Under the pieces are notes generated by a model. The model was not told where the DNA came from. It saw only the letters and a program-made list of their open reading frames with translations, and searched no databases. A program made the position numbers and the translations under genes. Source: Conexibacter sp. S30A1 (lineage in GTDB: Bacteria; Actinomycetota; Thermoleophilia; Solirubrobacterales; Solirubrobacteraceae). Taken from it: DNA of 64,000 nt. The stretch lies in assembly GCF_023330665.1 (NCBI RefSeq), contig NZ_CP097127.1, positions 806,001 through 870,000 of the forward strand, written 5' to 3'. Below, piece by piece: positions 4,830 through 44,098 of this stretch. The stretch's first letter is position 1. Every line of letters begins with the position of its first letter.

Positions 4830-4879
4830 GCCCCAGCGCTGGAACCTCCGTGCTGCTCAACGCTGCTCAGCGCTGGGGC
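4830..4879. terminator. Inverted repeat at the end of the HD gene
   Basis: GCCCCAGCGCTG at 4830-4841 is perfectly complementary to CAGCGCTGGGGC at 4868-4879, with a 26-nt spacer that includes the HD gene stop codon (4867-4869). It probably terminates HD transcription or forms a processing hairpin before the dehydrogenase gene. There is no T tract. Confidence 0.4.
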
Positions 4880-5469
4880 ACGAGCGACGGCGAGACCTGC
4901 TCAAGCGCCGCGATCACCCGCGCGACGTGCTCGTCAAAGTCGACGCCCAGCGCGTCGGCACCGGCGGTCAGCTGCTGGCGATCCACGGCGGCGGCAAAGC
5001 TCGGCTGCTTCATCTTCTTCCTGACCGACTTGGGGCTCATGCCGGCCAGTCCCTCGGGCCGGACGTAGGCGACCGCCAGCACGAAGCCCGAGAGCTCATC
5101 GACCGCGTACAGCGCCCGTTCCAGCTGCGTCTCGCGGGTTATGCCGAGGTAATCGGCGTGCGAGCCGACCGCGCGGATCAGCTCCTCCGGGTAGCCACGG
5201 CGCCGGAGCTCCTCCATTGCGACGCGCGGATGCCCGGTACTCAGGTCCGGGTGCCGTTCGTAGTCCAGGTCGTGCAGGAGTCCTGTCAGGCCCCAGAGCT
5301 CAGGATCGGCTTCAAAGTGCTCTGCGTAGGCGCGCATCGCCGCCTCGACGGCCAGCATGTGGCGGCGCAGCGAGTCGCTCTCGGTCCACTCGCAGACCAG
5401 CGCCCAGGCCGCCTCGCGGGCGTCCTGCGCGGACTGCGGCAGCGTGCCAGACGTGGTCTCGGCGTCCAT
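4867..5469 (-). CDS. HD domain-containing phosphohydrolase-like protein
   Basis: 200 aa. A metal-binding HD domain is visible: RRHM supplies the first His (about residue 36), LLHDLDYE the HD pair (about 67-68), and YAVDELSGF a final Asp. The pattern GLTGLLHDLDYERHP is typical of small HD proteins related to predicted nucleotide or phosphate-ester hydrolases. The real substrate is unknown. The ATG at 5469 lies 21 nt from the divergent murA start, so the two promoters must overlap each other or the coding sequence. The C-terminus SPSLVPQR ends inside an inverted repeat. Confidence 0.8.
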   Translation of the reverse strand: MDAETTSGTLPQSAQDAREAAWALVCEWTESDSLRRHMLAVEAAMRAYAEHFEADPELWGLTGLLHDLDYERHPDLSTGHPRVAMEELRRRGYPEELIRAVGSHADYLGITRETQLERALYAVDELSGFVLAVAYVRPEGLAGMSPKSVRKKMKQPSFAAAVDRQQLTAGADALGVDFDEHVARVIAALEQVSPSLVPQR

Positions 5470-5490
5470 GCCGTTACCTTACTGGTAGCC

Positions 5491-6792
5491 ATGGAAAAGT
5501 TCGTGATCGAAGGCGGCGCGCCGCTGTCAGGCACCGTCATACCGGCTGGCAACAAGAACGGGGCGCTGCCGATCCTCGCCGCCACGCTGCTGACCGACGA
5601 GGATGTGACGCTGCGCAACATCCCGCGCATCAAGGACGTGGACGCGATGCTCGCGCTGCTGGCATCGCTCGGCGCCGCGGTCACGTGGAGCAGCGGCGGC
5701 GAGGTGCGCGTCAACACCGGCGCCGTCAGCCGCACCAGCGTCGACCGCGAGCTCGGTGAGCGCATCCGCGCCTCCTTCCTGCTGGCCGGCCCGCTACTTG
5801 CGCGCTTCGGCCGCGCCGAGATGCCACCGCCAGGTGGTGACGTGATCGGGCGCCGGCGCCTTGACCCCCACTTCGATGCGATGCGGGCACTCGGTGCCGA
5901 CGTTGAGGTCGGCGCCAACATCCGCCTGACGGCGCCCGCCGGCGGCCTTGCGCCCTGCGACTTTCTGATGGACGAGCCCTCCGTGATGGCGACCGAGAAC
6001 GCGCTGCTGGCAGCCGCGCTGACGCCCGGCACATCCGTGATCCGCAACGCCGCCTCCGAGCCGCACGTGCAGGATCTGGCGCGGATGCTGATCAAGATGG
6101 GCGCTCAGATCGAGGGGATCGGCTCAAACGTGATGATGGTCACCGGCCGCGACCGGCTGCACGGCTGCGAGCACACGATCGCCCCCGATCACATCGAGAT
6201 CGGCTCGTTCATGGCGCTGGCCGGGGTCACCGGTGGCGAGCTCACGATCAAGGACACCGTGCCGGAGGACCTGCGCATGATCAGGCTGGTGTTCGAGCGG
6301 CTCGGCCTGAAGAGCACCATGATCGGCAATGACGTGCACGTCCCGGGCAACCAGCACCTGGTCATCCAGAGCGACGCGGGCGGCTACACGCCGAAGGTCC
6401 AGGACGGCCCCTGGCCGGCGCTGCCAGCCGACCTCACCAGCGTTGTTGTGGCGCTCGCCACCCAGGCCGAGGGCTCGGTGATCATCCATGAGTGGATGTT
6501 TGAGAGCCGACTGGTGTTCACCGACAAGCTGCAGCTGATGGGCGCCGCGATCACGATCTGCGACCCACATCGAGCGATCGTGGTGGGCCCACGCAGGCTT
6601 CGCGGCCAGCGCGTGGAGTCCCCCGATATCCGTGCCGGCATGGCGATGCTGATCGCGGCGCTGTGCGCGCAGGGCATAACCGAGATCGGCAACATCCGCC
6701 AGATCGACCGCGGCTACGAGCGGATCGACGAGCGTCTGCGTGCGCTCGGGGCGCGGATCACGCGCGTTGAGGACAACAGCATCCGCGGCTGA
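5491..6792 (+). CDS. murA: UDP-N-acetylglucosamine 1-carboxyvinyltransferase, Asp-type
   Basis: 433 aa, normal MurA length. It transfers enolpyruvate from PEP to UDP-GlcNAc, the first committed cytoplasmic step of peptidoglycan synthesis. The N-terminal GGAPLSGTVIPAGNKNGALPILAATLL holds the conserved Lys/Asn. The loop PPPGGDVIGRRRLDPH has Asp117 where most MurA enzymes have the PEP-attacking Cys115, as in Mycobacterium and Chlamydia; this is known to give intrinsic fosfomycin insensitivity. The start is ATG 5491. The frame is open far upstream, but that part is antisense to the HD gene. hisZ begins at the very next base after the stop, so murA probably heads the his operon transcript. Confidence 0.96.
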   Translation: MEKFVIEGGAPLSGTVIPAGNKNGALPILAATLLTDEDVTLRNIPRIKDVDAMLALLASLGAAVTWSSGGEVRVNTGAVSRTSVDRELGERIRASFLLAGPLLARFGRAEMPPPGGDVIGRRRLDPHFDAMRALGADVEVGANIRLTAPAGGLAPCDFLMDEPSVMATENALLAAALTPGTSVIRNAASEPHVQDLARMLIKMGAQIEGIGSNVMMVTGRDRLHGCEHTIAPDHIEIGSFMALAGVTGGELTIKDTVPEDLRMIRLVFERLGLKSTMIGNDVHVPGNQHLVIQSDAGGYTPKVQDGPWPALPADLTSVVVALATQAEGSVIIHEWMFESRLVFTDKLQLMGAAITICDPHRAIVVGPRRLRGQRVESPDIRAGMAMLIAALCAQGITEIGNIRQIDRGYERIDERLRALGARITRVEDNSIRG

Positions 6793-37538: not shown

Positions 37539-38054
37539 GTGAACCTGCGCAGCTATGTCCGCGACATCCCCGACTTCCCGTCGCCAGGGATCCTGTTTCG
37601 CGACATCACGCCGCTGCTGCTCGATCCACGCGCGCTGGACGCGTCGATCAGCAGGCTGATCAGGTACGCGCGGGACATGGAGGTCGATTACGTGGTGGCC
37701 GCTGAAGCACGCGGGTTCATTCTCGGCGGCGCGCTTGCCCGCGGCCTGCGTGCCGGGTTCGTGCCCGCGCGCAAGCGCGGCAAGCTGCCGCACGAGACGG
37801 TCAGTGCCGAATATGCGCTTGAGTACGGCATTGATGCGCTGGAGATGCATGCCGACGCCTTTGCCGGTGGCGCCCGGGTCCTGATCCACGATGACCTGCT
37901 GGCCACCGGCGGTACCGCAAGAGCGCTCGCAGAGCTGGTCGGCCGCCTTGGTGGAGAGGTGCTCGCATGTCTCTTCCTGGTCGAATTGCGTTCCTTCGAG
38001 GGCCGCCTGGCACTGTCGCAGTACAAGGTGCATTCGCTGATTCAGTACGACTGA
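37539..38054 (+). CDS. apt: Adenine phosphoribosyltransferase
   Basis: 171 aa, the usual length. It salvages adenine to AMP with PRPP. Key blocks are YVRDIPDFPSPGILFRDITPLLLDP, AAEARGFILGGALARGLRAGFVPARKRGKLPHETV and the PRPP loop VLIHDDLLATGGTARALAEL. GTG 37539, with GAGG 9 nt upstream, gives the conserved N-terminus; TTG 37491 would add 16 unlike residues and overlap the MerR-type gene. It converges with the phosphopantetheinyl transferase gene, overlapping by 13 nt. In many genomes apt is near relA/rel; none is seen here. Confidence 0.94.
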   Translation: MNLRSYVRDIPDFPSPGILFRDITPLLLDPRALDASISRLIRYARDMEVDYVVAAEARGFILGGALARGLRAGFVPARKRGKLPHETVSAEYALEYGIDALEMHADAFAGGARVLIHDDLLATGGTARALAELVGRLGGEVLACLFLVELRSFEGRLALSQYKVHSLIQYD

Positions 38055-38530
38055 GACGACCGGTCGGGCCGCTCGTTGAGCGACCAGACGACCCAGGCCA
38101 CATGTTCCGGTGCGACCTGCAGCTCGCTTGCCGACCAGCTGCCGGCGCGCCCGTCGCTCCAGGTCAGCGGTGACTGCAGCCGGCGCGGGTCGTAGGCGAG
38201 CGGATCGCCGAGCGCCTTGGCGAGCGCCTCCTTGCTCGCCCACAGCGAGGTCACGAAGCGCCCGTCGTCCAGCGAATCGGCGAACAGGCCAAGCTCGGTC
38301 GGCGTGCAGATCGACTCCGCAAAGGCGCGATCGCTGGCGCTGACGCGCTCCAGATCGACCCCGACCGGCGTGGTGTGCCACGCGACCAGTGCCAGCGGGG
38401 GTGCGTAGGAGCGTGAGACGAAGGGCGCCCCGCGTGCGCGCCAGTGGGCTCTGGCCACAGACCGCAGTTGTCCGGCGCTCGAGCCGGCTTCAGGTAGGCA
38501 GATCAGCTCGTGACACGGTTGCTGTGGCAC
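38042..38530 (-). CDS. 4'-phosphopantetheinyl transferase superfamily protein
   Basis: 162 aa from GTG 38530. The Sfp/AcpS-type metal and CoA motifs are present: VGVDLERVS (G-x-D-x-E) and SLWASKEALAKALGD (W-x-x-K-E-A). It transfers phosphopantetheine from CoA to a carrier-protein serine. The start lies 10 nt after the stop of the Pls-like synthetase on the same strand, so its likely client is the carrier domain of that synthetase (Ser539). An upstream ATG at 38596 would overlap the synthetase end. It is small compared with Sfp (about 224 aa), so the N-terminal half is shortened. Confidence 0.85.
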   Translation of the reverse strand: MPQQPCHELICLPEAGSSAGQLRSVARAHWRARGAPFVSRSYAPPLALVAWHTTPVGVDLERVSASDRAFAESICTPTELGLFADSLDDGRFVTSLWASKEALAKALGDPLAYDPRRLQSPLTWSDGRAGSWSASELQVAPEHVAWVVWSLNERPDRSSQSY

Positions 38531-38540
38531 GTGCGACCTG

Positions 38541-41500
38541 TCAACGCGGCCCCACCGGCGCGCCGTGCCAGCGCGATCCGGCAGGGAGCTCCTCACCGCG
38601 CATCACAATCGACCTGCCGCCGACAGAGGTTCCATCGCCGATCACCGTGTCGGGCAGCGCCACGCTGCTTGGCCCCAGGCTCGCTCCGGCGCCGATCAGG
38701 ACCGGACCGGTGCTCATCACGCGGTCGTGGAAGAGGTGCGTCTCGACCACTGCACCACGCGCCACGGCGCTCCCGTCGGCGAAGCTCGCCAGATCAAACT
38801 CGGTGGTGTTGAGGTTCTCCACCCACACGTCGCTGCCCACGCGGGCGCCGAGCAGTCGCAGGTACAGCGACATCAGCGGGGTGCCGAGCGCCATGTCCAT
38901 CAGCAACGGCCCGGCGAGTTGCTCCTGGCAGCTGTTGATGATCTCATCGCGCCAGACGTAGAAGGAGAAGAATGGGTGATCGCCAGCGGTGTAGCGCCCC
39001 ATCAGTGCCCACTTCACGACCACGGTGACCAGCACCGCGCCGACGCCCAGCGCCACGAGGATGACGGGCATGGCCACGGCCATCCAGGCCACGCCGAGGT
39101 GACGGTGGATGTCCTCGGCAAGCCCGTAGGCACCGGAGCCAAGTGCGAAGGCGACCGAGCTCGGCAGCATGATGCGAATCACGTCCATCAACCGCCTGGC
39201 TACGCGCAGGCCCAGGGGAGGGTTGATGGTGCGTGCCGGGTCGGCGCACATGGGTCGGCGTGGCAGCTCGAGCGCCGGCGAGCCGAGCCACGATGTGCCC
39301 GGCGCCGGCGCCGGCGGCGCGAGCGTCATCACGCCGATCAGGCTGTCATCGCCGATGGTGCTTCCCGCTTGCAGGATCGCGCTGTTGCCGAGGAATGTCC
39401 GGTCGCCGACCTCTATGGGTGCAACGTAGAGCCAGCCGTCACGAGCGCGCGCGCTGGCAAAGACGACGTCGTCAGCCGCGAAGCTGGCGCTACCGAGGCG
39501 CGTCAGACGGTTGAGGCCAACGACGTTTGAGACCTCGGTGCGTGGGCCCACGGGAATGCCGCAGAGCCTGAGCCAGCGGTTGGTGAAGCTCGATGCGTAC
39601 AGCGGAAAGAGCGCAAAGCGTGACTGCTCCATGATCCGATCTGTCATCCAAAGCGCCCAGGGTGTCGGACCGTTGCCGTGGTGCCAGCCCGGCTTGATCA
39701 GCCGGCCCAGGAGCCGCACGCAGAGTGCCACAGACAGCGCCATGAAGACCGTGAAAAGCAGCGCGAACGCCGGGGAGAGCAGCAGCATGTCGCGCATCAG
39801 CGCAAGCGAGTGCCGTGGGGCACGCTCGACCATCAGCAGCGGCGCCAGACCGGGTGCGGCCGCCAGCAGCGGCAACACCATCTGGGCGATCATCCCGAGC
39901 GCGTAGAGGCGCCGCCACCGTCGTGCGCGCTCAGGTGCGGTCGGTGGTGGTGGGGTCGCCGGCCAGTTCTCGCCAGCCTTTCCGACCTTCCTGCCTGGGG
40001 CGCCTGCCCAGCGCTCACCTGCTGGGACCGTGCCCGTGATCACAGTTCCCGGCTCAACTTCTGAACCGGGTTCGAGGCGCGCGCCTGGCATCAGCAGCGT
40101 GCGCGCGCCGACGCGCGCACCGGCACCGACCGACACCTCACCGATCACCAGCTCGGCGCCTTCAACGTGCCAGCCCAGCATGTCGACGGCACCCTCGACC
40201 GTGGCACCTGGGCCGATCTCGATGAAGGATGCTGCCGACGGCAGCGTTCCGAGCCTCGCGCCGCGCCCGACGCGGTGCCCGAGCAGCCTGGCGTAGCGCG
40301 CAGCCCAGGGGGTACCGGCCAGGCCATCCAGGCGGCAGTGGCCAGCGACGTGCTCGACGAAGCTGACCCTGAAACTGAGCCAGCTGTTGCGCGGATAGCG
40401 TCCCGGTTTCACGCCCCTGAGCAGGACCCTGCTGACCGTGACCGAGATCAGCGCCCGGGTAGCAACGTTTGAGAGCAGCAGCCAGCCACCGATGATCCAT
40501 AGCCACCCGAGCTGCGGTCCAACGTGATACCAGCGGTCAAACGCCAGCACCCCAGCCATCCAGGAGGGCACGTCGATCAGCACCAGGCTCAGATGCAGGA
40601 TCAGTTGCGCGAGGCGCGCGCCGCGGCTGGAGCGAGCTTCGCTGCTGGCCACACTCATCCCAGACTCGCCGAGGTCCTGCAGCCGTGCGGCGAAGGTGCT
40701 GAGTGTCGGGTTGTGGTAGAGGTCTGCGACCGCCACAGCCGGGTAGCGACGCCGCACGGTTGAGATCAGCTTGGCCGCGGCGAGGCTCGTGCCGCCAGCG
40801 GCGAAGAAGTCGGAGTTGGGTCCGAGCGCAACCGGCCCAAGCTGTTCAACCCAACGCTCGCCGACCCAGATCTCGTGCTCACTGAGCACGCTGCCGTCCG
40901 CGCCAACTCCCGCGGCCAAGGCTTGCGTGTCGTCTGAGAGCGGCCATGGCAGCGCGCGACGGTCGACCTTGCCGGCGGTGTTGACCGGCAGTTGCTCAAG
41001 CGCGACGAGCAGTGGCGCCAGACCAGCCGGCAGGCGCTGGGCGACGTGCTGGCGAATTTGGTCGTGGTCACCGTCGGCGACGATGTAACCCACCAGGAGC
41101 TTGTTCCCAGAGCTGCTCTCCCTGGCCACGACGGCCGCCGCACGAACGCCCGGCGCGCTCTGGAGCGCTGCCTCCACCTCGCCCAGCTCGATGCGTCGGC
41201 CGCCGACCTTGACCTGATCGTCGCGCCTGCCTACGAACTCCAGGCCATGTTCACCGATGCGGACGATGTCACCAGTGCGGTATGCGCGCCGCCAGCCCAG
41301 CGCCTCGACACCGGCGTAGCGTGTCGCGTCCAGCTCGGGATCAAGGTAACGGCCAAGGCCGACGCCGGCGATCACCAACTCGCCGCTTTCACCAGGGTCG
41401 ACCGGCCGTTCCCCATCAAGCACGGCCACCTGCCAGCCTTTCAGCGGCCAGCCGATGCTGATCGGCTCGCCGGGGATGATCGGCGCCGCCGTGGAGACGA

Positions 41501-42401
41501 CGGTCGCCTCCGTGGGACCATAGGTGTTCCAAACCTCCCGCCCGGCGGCCAGGCGCCAGCCGAGCTTCTCGGGGCAGGCTTCGCCGCCGAGGATCAGCAG
41601 CCGCACGTTTTGCAGGCAGGACTCATCCCAGAGCGCCGCGAGCGTCGGCACCGTGGAGACGACCGTGATGTGCCGTTCCACAAGCCAACTGCCCAGCTCG
41701 ACGCCGGCACGAACGACCTCCCGCGGGGCGGGCACCAGCGCCGCACCGTGCGCCCAGGCAAGCCACATCTCCTCACAGCTGGCGTCAAAGCCAACCGACA
41801 GGCCGGCCAGGACCCGGTCGCTGGAGTGCACCTCCCAGAGCTTGGACTCGGCCTGCACAAACGCTGCCGCTGAGCGGTGGGTTACGGCCACGCCCTTCGG
41901 CTGGCCGGTCGTGCCGGATGTGAAGATGATCCAGGCGTCATCATCGGCCTGCGGCTCGCCGCACGCGCGGCGCGGCGCGTGAGCTGTCATCTGGATGCTT
42001 GCGTCCATGCCGAGCACGGCACAGGCCTCCGAGCGCTCGAGAATGCTGTTGGCGCGCTCCTGCGGATCGTCGGCGTCGATCGGTACGTAGGCGGCACCGC
42101 AGGCGATGACCGCAAGAATCGCTGCGTAGAGCTCCGCACCGCCGCTGCGCACACGCACCGCCACGCGGTCGCCGCGACCGATGCCGCGCGCCCGCAGGCG
42201 CGCCGCCAGAGAGGCTACGGCGGCGTCCAGCTCCGCATACGAGTAGGTCGCGTCTGGCGCGTCAAGCGCCAAGCGCTCAGGCCAGCGCTCAACCGTGCCC
42301 CTGAAGATCTCAAGCAGCGTCCGCGCGCGCTGCTCGCGACTCGGGTTCCAGGCCCGTTGACGGGCGCTCACAGCTGGGCCAATCGACTGCACTGGTTTCA
42401 C
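38541..42401 (-). CDS. Pls/PosA-type non-ribosomal peptide synthetase with membrane beta-helix modules
   Basis: 1286 aa, the size and layout of epsilon-poly-lysine synthetase-like enzymes. An adenylation domain spans about 25-495 (FTSGTTGQPKGVAVTH, FDASCEEMW, NTYGPTEA, RRDDQVKVGGRRIELGE, NTAGKVDRR with Lys478). The residue matching GrsA position 239 is Glu, usual for cationic amino acids. A carrier domain has Ser539 in FFAAGGTSLAAAK. Three paired-TM plus left-handed beta-helix acyltransferase-like modules end near 800, 1048 and 1286. It would join one amino acid type into a short chain at the membrane. There is no thioesterase. The product (poly-Lys, -Orn, -Dab or a lipid-amino acid) is inferred. 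Confidence 0.88.
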   Translation of the reverse strand: MKPVQSIGPAVSARQRAWNPSREQRARTLLEIFRGTVERWPERLALDAPDATYSYAELDAAVASLAARLRARGIGRGDRVAVRVRSGGAELYAAILAVIACGAAYVPIDADDPQERANSILERSEACAVLGMDASIQMTAHAPRRACGEPQADDDAWIIFTSGTTGQPKGVAVTHRSAAAFVQAESKLWEVHSSDRVLAGLSVGFDASCEEMWLAWAHGAALVPAPREVVRAGVELGSWLVERHITVVSTVPTLAALWDESCLQNVRLLILGGEACPEKLGWRLAAGREVWNTYGPTEATVVSTAAPIIPGEPISIGWPLKGWQVAVLDGERPVDPGESGELVIAGVGLGRYLDPELDATRYAGVEALGWRRAYRTGDIVRIGEHGLEFVGRRDDQVKVGGRRIELGEVEAALQSAPGVRAAAVVARESSSGNKLLVGYIVADGDHDQIRQHVAQRLPAGLAPLLVALEQLPVNTAGKVDRRALPWPLSDDTQALAAGVGADGSVLSEHEIWVGERWVEQLGPVALGPNSDFFAAGGTSLAAAKLISTVRRRYPAVAVADLYHNPTLSTFAARLQDLGESGMSVASSEARSSRGARLAQLILHLSLVLIDVPSWMAGVLAFDRWYHVGPQLGWLWIIGGWLLLSNVATRALISVTVSRVLLRGVKPGRYPRNSWLSFRVSFVEHVAGHCRLDGLAGTPWAARYARLLGHRVGRGARLGTLPSAASFIEIGPGATVEGAVDMLGWHVEGAELVIGEVSVGAGARVGARTLLMPGARLEPGSEVEPGTVITGTVPAGERWAGAPGRKVGKAGENWPATPPPPTAPERARRWRRLYALGMIAQMVLPLLAAAPGLAPLLMVERAPRHSLALMRDMLLLSPAFALLFTVFMALSVALCVRLLGRLIKPGWHHGNGPTPWALWMTDRIMEQSRFALFPLYASSFTNRWLRLCGIPVGPRTEVSNVVGLNRLTRLGSASFAADDVVFASARARDGWLYVAPIEVGDRTFLGNSAILQAGSTIGDDSLIGVMTLAPPAPAPGTSWLGSPALELPRRPMCADPARTINPPLGLRVARRLMDVIRIMLPSSVAFALGSGAYGLAEDIHRHLGVAWMAVAMPVILVALGVGAVLVTVVVKWALMGRYTAGDHPFFSFYVWRDEIINSCQEQLAGPLLMDMALGTPLMSLYLRLLGARVGSDVWVENLNTTEFDLASFADGSAVARGAVVETHLFHDRVMSTGPVLIGAGASLGPSSVALPDTVIGDGTSVGGRSIVMRGEELPAGSRWHGAPVGPR

Positions 42402-42526: not shown

Positions 42527-44098
42527 CTCGGGTTTCGCACTTTTGGGCCTGTAGCGGCATAGCGGCGTAGCAGGTGGTGGTGGACGGGGCCGTGGCGGGC
42601 TGGTGTGGCCTGTTGGCGCGGTGTCGGGGAAGGAGCATCGGCGGCTTGCGCGAAAGCGGTTGCTGTCAACATAACCCGTCCGTCGCGGCCAAGGGGAGGC
42701 ACGCTGCGCGGCTTCTCTTGGAGGCTGCCGCCGATGCTCTGCGTCCCATCTTCGCTGAACGAGCTGCTTGTCCTGTTTGAGTCGTGTTTCACCCGTCCCA
42801 CGTTTGAGACGTTCCGGGGGGTGTTGGTCGGTCAGGTCTCGCAGACCTCTCTGCGGTGCGTGACCGGGATGCTGACAGGCTCAAGGCTGTCGGGGGTGTG
42901 GCATCACGCGCGTTGCCACCGGTTCTTCGCCAATGCCCGCTGGTCCGTGGACGAGCTCGGGTTACGGCTCGCCTGCCTGATCGTTGAGCGGTTCACAGAA
43001 CCGGGTGCGAGCGTGCTGGTCGCGGTCGACGACACGCTCCTGAAACGCAGGGGACGCCGGATCCACGGCACCTTCTGGCATCACGACGCGACCGCCAACA
43101 GCCGCTCAGGCTCGGTCGCGTGGGGGAACAACTGGATCGTGGCCGGGATCTGTGTCAAGCTGCCGTTCCTGCAGCGCACCGTATGTTTGCCGGTCCTGTT
43201 CCGGCTCTGGCAGCCGCGGCGCGAACAGTTCGTCAAGCAGCACAAGCCCGATCCTGAGCGGCCCGGGAAGGTCAAGCTGGCCAGGGCGATGGTCTGCCTG
43301 CTCGCCAAACGGCTGCCGGATCGCCAGATCAACGTGGTCGGTGACAGCGCCTACATCAGCCAGGCGTGGCGTGCTGCACCCAAGCGGGTGACGATCACAT
43401 CGAGGCTGCGTAGCAACGCGGTGATCTACGCCCCTGCGCCGCCGCGCACCGGCAAACGCGGCCGGCCACGCAAATGGGGCAAACAGCTTGAAAGCCTTCA
43501 ACAGATCGCAGCCGACCCCGCCACCGAATGGGTAAAGACGACCGTCAGGCGCTACAGCAAAACCGAGACGCTCGAGCTGGCTGAGATCAACTGCCTGTGG
43601 GAGCCGCTCGGCGCCGAAACCCCGGTCCGTGTGATCCTCGTCAAAGACGACACCAAGCCGTGCGGCTACCAGATCGCGCTGATCACCACCGACCTTCACG
43701 CCACCGCCGCGCAGATCGTCGAACGCTACGCAGACCGCTGGCCGATCGAAGTCGCCTTCCAGGACGGCAAAGAACTGTTCGGCGTCGGTGATGCCCGCAA
43801 CCGGACCGAGAAAGCCGTGCAACGGACCGTCCCATTCCAGTTCTTGGCGATGGACCTCACGATCATCTGGTACGCGCTCTACGGACATCACCCCGACATC
43901 GTCACAGAGCATCGCGCCCGCGCCCCCTGGTATGTCTCCAAGACCACCCCATCATTCCAGGACATGCTCGCCAAGCTACGACGAGTGATCATCGCCACCC
44001 AATTTCAACCCGAACAGGCCCGAACCCCCACAACCCAGGAAATCAACCAAGTCCAGCAAGCATGGGCAGCCGCCGGCCTATGAACTGCGAAACCCGAG
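42527..44098. mobile_element. Complete insertion sequence, IS701-like (1572 bp)
   Basis: Terminal inverted repeats start CTCGGGTTTCGCA at 42527-42539 and are matched by TGCGAAACCCGAG at 44086-44098. A 5-bp duplication TTAAC flanks the element. A single intact DDE transposase fills it. The TTAA-containing target fits IS701-type preference; a 5-bp duplication is also reported in a sub-branch of that family. Matching TIRs, duplication and an uninterrupted gene indicate a recent insertion. It separates the Pls-like gene from the thioesterase. Confidence 0.9.
42734..44083 (+). CDS. DDE transposase (IS701-like)
   Basis: 449 aa from ATG 42734. The N-terminal block PTFETFRGVLVGQVSQTSLRCVTGML resembles the DNA-binding region of IS701-type enzymes. 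The catalytic triad candidates are Asp in VLVAVDDTLLKRRGRRIHG, Asp in INVVGDSAYISQAW, and Glu in WPIEVAFQDGKELFGVGDARNR. The frame is open upstream to 42605, and a longer N-terminus is possible, but it looks Arg/Ala-rich and non-native. The stop at 44083 lies 15 nt inside the right end. No frameshift is seen, so the enzyme is probably functional. Confidence 0.9.
   Translation: MLCVPSSLNELLVLFESCFTRPTFETFRGVLVGQVSQTSLRCVTGMLTGSRLSGVWHHARCHRFFANARWSVDELGLRLACLIVERFTEPGASVLVAVDDTLLKRRGRRIHGTFWHHDATANSRSGSVAWGNNWIVAGICVKLPFLQRTVCLPVLFRLWQPRREQFVKQHKPDPERPGKVKLARAMVCLLAKRLPDRQINVVGDSAYISQAWRAAPKRVTITSRLRSNAVIYAPAPPRTGKRGRPRKWGKQLESLQQIAADPATEWVKTTVRRYSKTETLELAEINCLWEPLGAETPVRVILVKDDTKPCGYQIALITTDLHATAAQIVERYADRWPIEVAFQDGKELFGVGDARNRTEKAVQRTVPFQFLAMDLTIIWYALYGHHPDIVTEHRARAPWYVSKTTPSFQDMLAKLRRVIIATQFQPEQARTPTTQEINQVQQAWAAAGL

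What the first reader, a model, noticed from the sequence alone, without database searches (positions are those of the whole stretch)
38042..42401. Pls/PosA-like membrane synthetase with its own phosphopantetheinyl transferase
The A-T-(TM-beta-helix)x3 layout is that of poly-cationic amino acid synthetases. Glu at the position matching GrsA 239 points to a basic amino acid. A dedicated short PPTase 10 nt downstream makes a self-contained two-gene module. The product in this lineage is not known to me.
Basis: partly seen in the sequence, partly recalled or inferred. Interest (0 to 1): 0.7.

Follow-up and report, generated by a model that had tools for sequence, protein, structure and literature searches.

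The report
Polylysine synthetase with dedicated mini activator
This bacterium carries a complete enzyme of the kind that makes the antimicrobial polymer epsilon-polylysine, followed directly by a small helper enzyme that probably switches it on; the polymer enzyme is ordinary, but the shortened helper, found with it in related genomes, looks new.

Summary
42401-38541 (-) encodes an intact 1286-aa A-T-(TM/beta-helix)x3 protein that passes the NCBIfam Pls/PosA model (513 bits, cut-off 423). 38530-38042 (-), 10 nt further on, encodes a 162-aa phosphopantetheinyl transferase (PPTase). The A-domain code, DAESIGTVVK, equals that of Streptomyces albulus epsilon-poly-L-lysine synthetase, including the five residues holding Lys-AMP in 7WEW. 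Best reading: an epsilon-polylysine synthetase.

The new part is the PPTase: Sfp-like in fold, but shorter, without the SHS motif. Its profile hits 18 of 399 genomes of the class, all among the 20 with a Pls-family gene, and stands directly downstream of 19 of 21 such genes. Of 396 genomes of the phylum only this one has it. Known operons pair pls with a peptidase instead; no M1 peptidase was found here. Eleven of 76 other loci have an ordinary PPTase 1.2-2.6 kb away, so PPTase clustering alone is not unique. No activity was tested. The synthetase is a new member; the module is a modest new variant.

The parts
38541..42401 (-). Pls/PosA-family synthetase gene, 1286 aa, GTG start, SD AGGAGG at 42415-42410; predicted epsilon-poly-L-lysine synthetase
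40968..42302 (-). Adenylation domain (residues 34-478); code D206 A207 E210 S249 I270 G272 T293 V301 V302 K478
40680..40865 (-). Thiolation (carrier) domain, residues 513-574; phosphopantetheine site Ser539 in GGTS
38553..40610 (-). TIGR02353 terminal domain, residues 598-1283: three repeats of membrane helices plus beta-helix
38042..38530 (-). Compact Sfp-like phosphopantetheinyl transferase, 162 aa: SRSY stretch where ordinary Sfp-type enzymes have SHS, DLE metal motif, WASKEA

Best explanation
The two genes form an epsilon-poly-L-lysine production module. The small PPTase moves a 4'-phosphopantetheine arm from CoA to Ser539 of the synthetase's carrier domain (inferred). The A domain adenylates L-lysine and loads it on that arm (predicted from an identical pocket). 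The membrane-bound triple beta-helix domain then joins lysines through their epsilon-amino groups and releases a cationic polymer (inferred from characterised Pls). The PPTase is a compact Sfp-like enzyme that descends with the synthetase and probably serves it, while the genome's other PPTase serves the two fatty-acid carrier proteins (inferred).
For: TIGR02353 above cut-off. Best solved structure is the Pls A domain 7WEW, E 2.8e-160. Ten-residue code identical to Pls and shared by 91 of 101 aligned rows, the query included (L004 and L149 are one gene). The residues that hold Lys-AMP in 7WEW (D213, E217, S256, T301, K495 in Pls numbering) match D206, E210, S249, T293, K478 by the alignment. 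Of 245 columns invariant in 75 actinobacterial Pls rows the window keeps 217; the 28 departures spare the code and Ser539. The mini-PPTase profile hits 18 of 399 class genomes, all among the 20 with a Pls-family gene. The profile was built from 19 of these very copies plus two others, so the hits follow by construction; the test is that 0 of the 379 genomes without a Pls hit have it (Fisher p 2.7e-29 ignores this and relatedness). 19 of 21 Pls-family genes have it directly downstream on the same strand. Linked Pls form one clade, support 0.997. D59, E61, K100, E101 are invariant in 21 rows. The model (pLDDT 88.8) matches Sfp best. The own genome has 3 PP-binding domains, two beside fatty-acid genes plus Pls, and 2 PPTases. 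A Corynebacterium Pls 51% identical to Streptomyces Pls made epsilon-polylysine in S. coelicolor (PMC8117764, results section read).
Against: Nothing was assayed. Terminal-domain identity to the actinobacterial Pls rows outside the class is only 35-43%, and 28 of 245 otherwise invariant columns differ, so polymer length or linkage could differ. The other PPTase in the genome could also load Pls. The mini-PPTase lacks the SHS motif of ordinary Sfp-type enzymes. L003, the 91% relative, lies in an incomplete genome in which no mini-PPTase was found; its pls runs off the contig before the PPTase position. No M1 peptidase was found, unlike known pls operons. An IS701 element sits 127 bp upstream. 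The Corynebacterium gene gave no detectable polymer in its native host or in C. glutamicum, only in S. coelicolor under the S. albulus promoter, so a correct gene need not mean a producing strain. Genome completeness is 93.8%, so absences are not absolute.
Confidence: 0.82

Rival explanations
1. Synthetase of another cationic polymer (delta-polyornithine, gamma-poly-DAB, beta-poly-Dap or epsilon-poly-beta-lysine).
For: Same family and same Glu at position 3; the family makes several polymers (PMC10522769).
Against: Position 2 is Ala, as in lysine enzymes; PosA has Met, the Dap/Dab enzymes Phe, and the beta-lysine code is DGESISVVNK. All ten residues equal those of Pls.
Confidence: 0.08
2. The PPTase is a general or decayed enzyme that merely sits next to pls and does not serve it.
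For: Short N-terminal part and no SHS motif; a second, ordinary-looking PPTase exists in the genome.
Against: D59, E61, K100, E101 invariant in 21 rows; no copy in any of 379 class genomes without a Pls hit; in one of three same-genus genomes looked at without pls, the flanking genes abut with neither pls nor the PPTase.
Confidence: 0.12
3. The module is silenced or altered in expression in this strain because an IS701 element entered the intergenic region upstream of pls.
For: IS701 transposase at 42605-44083; the 91%-identical relative L003 lacks it.
Against: Both ORFs and the ribosome-binding site are intact, and 127 bp of the original upstream DNA remain.
Confidence: 0.2

Closest known systems
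epsilon-Poly-L-lysine synthetase Pls, Streptomyces albulus (A domain PDB 7WEW)
   Same: Ten-residue code and Lys-contact residues; same layout and terminal-domain family (layout of Pls)
   Different: In S. albulus pls overlaps pldII, a polylysine degradase, by 4 bp (PMC4361855 passages); here pls is followed by a PPTase, and no M1 peptidase was found in the genome
PosA, delta-poly-L-ornithine synthetase of Acinetobacter baumannii
   Same: Family and three-fold TM/beta-helix terminal domain (PMC10522769)
   Different: PosA code DMEHNGTVSK, prefers ornithine, single-gene operon
Sfp-type PPTases (Sfp, PDB 1QR0 and 4MRT)
   Same: Best fold match, E 6.5e-8; D-x-E and W-x-x-K-E motifs
   Different: 162 aa against 225-228 aa; profile position 40 aligns with Sfp 88, so about 48 fewer residues before it; no SHS motif
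In-cluster dedicated PPTases of type II polyketide clusters (Gra-ORF32, JadM)
   Same: A PPTase gene kept in the cluster of its client (PMC9813960 passages)
   Different: Sfp-type of usual size with an extra Arg/Pro-rich N terminus; aromatic polyketide clients

Membership tests
Pls/PosA cationic homopolyamino acid synthetases (TIGR02353) | Terminal domain above the curated cut-off | tested here: met
   513.1 bits against 423.1
Pls/PosA cationic homopolyamino acid synthetases (TIGR02353) | A-T followed by three membrane-helix/beta-helix repeats, no C or TE domain | tested here: met
   hydropathy found 5 of 6 TM peaks
Pls/PosA cationic homopolyamino acid synthetases (TIGR02353) | Asp and Glu at code positions 1 and 3 | tested here: met
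   D206, E210; criterion from PMC10522769
epsilon-Poly-L-lysine synthetase | Lysine pocket identical to Pls | tested here: met
   DAESIGTVVK; contact residues identical
epsilon-Poly-L-lysine synthetase | Makes epsilon-linked polylysine | not testable with these tools
   Needs expression and mass spectrometry
epsilon-Poly-L-lysine synthetase | Operon with a peptidase gene (usual in described cases, not required) | tested here: not met
   Downstream gene is a PPTase; Peptidase_M1 0 hits in the own genome. That PldII is an M1 enzyme is recalled; M1 genes stand beside pls in L017 and L040
Sfp-type PPTase | ACPS superfamily domain | tested here: met
   PF01648 in 21 of 21 members
Sfp-type PPTase | Pseudodimer of about 230 aa with two similar halves | tested here: not met
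   162 aa; one strand and one helix before E37-43; size criterion from PMC9813960
Sfp-type PPTase | SHS motif | tested here: not met
   Aligned with three ordinary PPTases carrying LSHS, the window reads SRSY; that SHS is typical of the type is recalled
AcpS-type PPTase | About 120 aa, closest to AcpS | tested here: inconclusive
   162 aa; best folds are Sfp-type and AcpS chains rank 33 and below, but AcpS chains score best by sequence profile

The most novel reading that the evidence does not exclude
The PPTase is a class-specific miniature Sfp-like enzyme that shed much of its N-terminal half, lost the SHS motif in favour of an invariant Arg-x-Tyr, and became tied to, and selective for, the carrier domain of a membrane polylysine synthetase, insulated from fatty-acid carrier proteins.
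Probability: 0.45. Interest if true: 0.5.

Novelty: new variant of a known kind. Interest (0 to 1): 0.36.

Why it matters
It adds a lineage of predicted polylysine producers with a ready two-gene expression cassette. If the mini-PPTase is active and selective it would be a small orthogonal activation and labelling tool, and a test of how much of the Sfp fold is needed. It also raises the question of how these cells avoid their own polymer without the peptidase found beside pls elsewhere.

Tried and rejected
Rejected: a non-basic or unknown A-domain substrate (code identical to Pls). Rejected: a PPTase directly behind Pls as a general property of Pls loci. A generic PPTase profile (21 seeds found by motif among 31 loci, 8 of the seeds being mini-PPTases) found a hit in 11 of 76 other loci (L007-L082), none closer than 1.18 kb. 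Of the 76, L014 has no downstream flank and six more have less than 3 kb, so 75 were informative for direct adjacency and fewer for distance. L014 itself is of the class: its genome's mini-PPTase lies on another contig. Rejected: orphan mini-PPTase copies. The one extra copy (G236) lies at a contig end, so a pls gene beyond it cannot be excluded.

Corrected on checking: my first reading that Arg40 replaces the SHS histidine is not borne out. In one search the window's SRSY stands over LSHS of ordinary PPTases, so Ser41 falls on the His and Arg40 one place before; the Sfp alignment leaves the exact column open.

Led nowhere: a first profile run gave no table because its pipe closed early, rerun; the second structure aligner was not on the machine. 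Literature searches for a Pls-linked PPTase showed none in their listings; these are capped lists of open-licence papers, and most listed papers were not opened.

Rows dropped: the tree left out L139, L090, L156, L157 (divergent or fragments) and L149 (same gene as L004), keeping 96; its rows outside the class are the best-scoring 80 of more than 589 relatives, all found by close-relative patterns. Alignment A1 has 21 of 22 PPTases (L149 equals L004). Alignment A3 used every second row, 39 of 78 prepared, plus the window. One search was given 38 of the 80 loci and searched 36. Ten downstream ORFs from ten loci were scanned with Pfam: 2 M1 peptidases, 1 DUF6882, 1 PPTase, 6 without a hit, so several were probably not the true genes. 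Only 3 same-genus genomes without pls were looked at for the empty site: one shows it, one has 1.6 kb of other DNA there, one lacks the 4HBT gene beside apt.

Full report
What is there. On the minus strand, 42401-38541 encodes a 1286-residue protein with an AGGAGG ribosome-binding site 8 nt before its GTG start. Ten bases after its stop codon a second gene starts, 38530-38042, 162 residues. Pfam finds AMP-binding, AMP-binding_C, PP-binding and hexapeptide domains in the first and the ACPS superfamily in the second. NCBIfam names residues 598-1283 the Pls/PosA terminal domain, 513.1 bits against a cut-off of 423.1.

Substrate. [quoted passage not shown] Placing the GrsA positions on the sequence (the GrsA motif positions are recalled, not fetched) gives DAESIGTVVK: D206 A207 E210 S249 I270 G272 T293 V301 V302 K478. 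The same ten residues stand in 7WEW by the alignment, and in 91 of 101 aligned rows including the query. The other ten are DAESVGTVVK in 2, DAESIGTVIK in 2, one with three gaps, one divergent (L140), one not alignable (L139) and three fragments. A review passage lists D213, E217, S256, T301 and K495 as the residues that hold Lys-AMP in 7WEW (PMC11253843 passages); all five are identical here. PosA (ornithine) has DMEHNGTVSK, the beta-lysine enzyme DGESISVVNK, and Dap/Dab enzymes have Phe at position 2 (PMC10522769: abstract, passages and sections 6, 10, 11, 13). The window therefore reads as a lysine enzyme.

Terminal domain. AlphaFold2 on residues 591-1286 with 40 rows gives pLDDT 88.6 and pTM 0.89: three repeats of long helices, then a beta-helix, as described for the PosA model. 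Foldseek finds mostly hexapeptide acetyltransferases over part of the model; the best 50 have TM-scores of at most 0.16 by query length, so no solved structure covers the whole. Of 245 columns invariant in 75 actinobacterial Pls rows the window departs at 28, outside the code and Ser539. Identity of this domain to rows outside the class is 35-43%.

PPTase. The 21 related proteins share 27 invariant columns, among them R40, Y42, D59, E61, W97, K100, E101, G108, D109. Group II PPTases bind magnesium through Asp-Xxx-Glu (PMC4103896 abstract); reading D59-L60-E61 and E101 as metal and catalytic residues is mine. The AlphaFold2 model (4 rows, pLDDT 88.8, pTM 0.85) matches Sfp best, E 6.5e-8. By sequence profile, AcpS chains score better than Sfp, so the Sfp-like call rests on the fold. 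Profile position 40 aligns with Sfp 88, about 48 residues more before this point in Sfp. Against three ordinary PPTases of the class with LSHS, the window reads SRSY at the same place: the histidine is gone, and an invariant Arg and Tyr stand beside its column. The own genome's ordinary PPTase is 203 aa.

Distribution. In 399 genomes drawn from the class, 20 hold a Pls-family gene at E <= 1e-60, 21 genes in all since G387 has two and G276 and G166 are split over contigs. The mini-PPTase profile hits 18 of the 399, 20 copies, none in a genome without such a gene. Because the profile was made from 19 of these copies and two others, those hits are expected; the informative part is the silence of the other genomes. 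Nineteen of the 21 genes have the mini-PPTase directly downstream on the same strand; over the 22 aligned rows its conserved part begins between -10 and 308 nt from the Pls stop. The exceptions are G358, with divergent code DFEVLSVVSK, and G285, described among the things noticed. In 396 genomes of the phylum only the window's own has it at E <= 1e-15. L005 and L006 also have it; L003's incomplete genome shows none, and its pls is cut by the contig end. Of 76 other loci (L007-L082), 11 have an ordinary PPTase 1.2-2.6 kb downstream, 10 of them on the opposite strand. Linked Pls form one clade, support 0.997, 20 tips, no intruder among 96 rows; two of these tips (L003, L014) are cut off before the PPTase position. 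The class is not named by the tools; a Solirubrobacterales title on L005 suggests Thermoleophilia, which is inference.

Genome setting. The own genome has two PPTases, this one and a 203-aa one with NLSHS, and three PP-binding domains: Pls and two small carrier proteins beside fatty-acid genes (gene names are my reading of the translations). No M1 peptidase was found; the control search rang in 8 of 14 genomes. Pfam finds an M1 peptidase beside pls in L017 and L040; S. albulus has pls-pldII (PMC4361855 passages) and Corynebacterium variabile pls with a peptidase gene (PMC8117764 results section). The order 4HBT-pls-PPTase-apt-ftsR is kept in L153 and L154, while other class loci showed none of these flanking genes beside pls. 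In L207 of the same genus 4HBT and apt lie about 90 bases apart with neither gene between, so there the pair is absent as a unit; two other same-genus genomes gave no such clean site.

Judgement. The synthetase is a new member of a well-described family, with a predicted known product. The paired compact PPTase is a real, conserved variant that I did not find described (searches named in Tried and rejected). Shown: sequences, code, models, co-occurrence. Inferred: activity, dedication, export, product. A Corynebacterium relative made polymer only under a Streptomyces promoter in S. coelicolor, so production by this strain is not implied.

Noticed in passing
42605-44083 (+): IS701-family transposase in the intergenic region upstream of pls, leaving 127 bp; the 91%-identical relative L003 lacks it.
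   Followed up: partly
L139 5474-10258 (+), PPTase frame 4870-5592 (+): A Pls-like protein with permuted order T - terminal domain - A, an A-domain code without Glu (DIWQSTASDK), and a PPTase gene of another type directly upstream in an overlapping frame. Possibly a different product class.
   Followed up: partly
L140 8849-12991 (-): Divergent same-genus Pls homologue with code DFEVLSVVSK and no adjacent PPTase; Phe at position 2 recalls Dap/Dab enzymes.
   Followed up: no
L020, L027, L029, L032, L036, L040, L060, L066, L068, L073, L074: Ordinary PPTase 1.2-2.6 kb downstream of pls in these 11 loci, mostly Arthrobacter and related genera, 10 of 11 on the opposite strand; a possible second, independent pls-PPTase association.
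   Followed up: partly
L004 / L149: A contig titled 'Chlamydiae bacterium' appears to be the same contig as one of G387, a genome of the window's own family (same length 12994, identical PPTase and same hit places); the title is probably wrong.
   Followed up: partly
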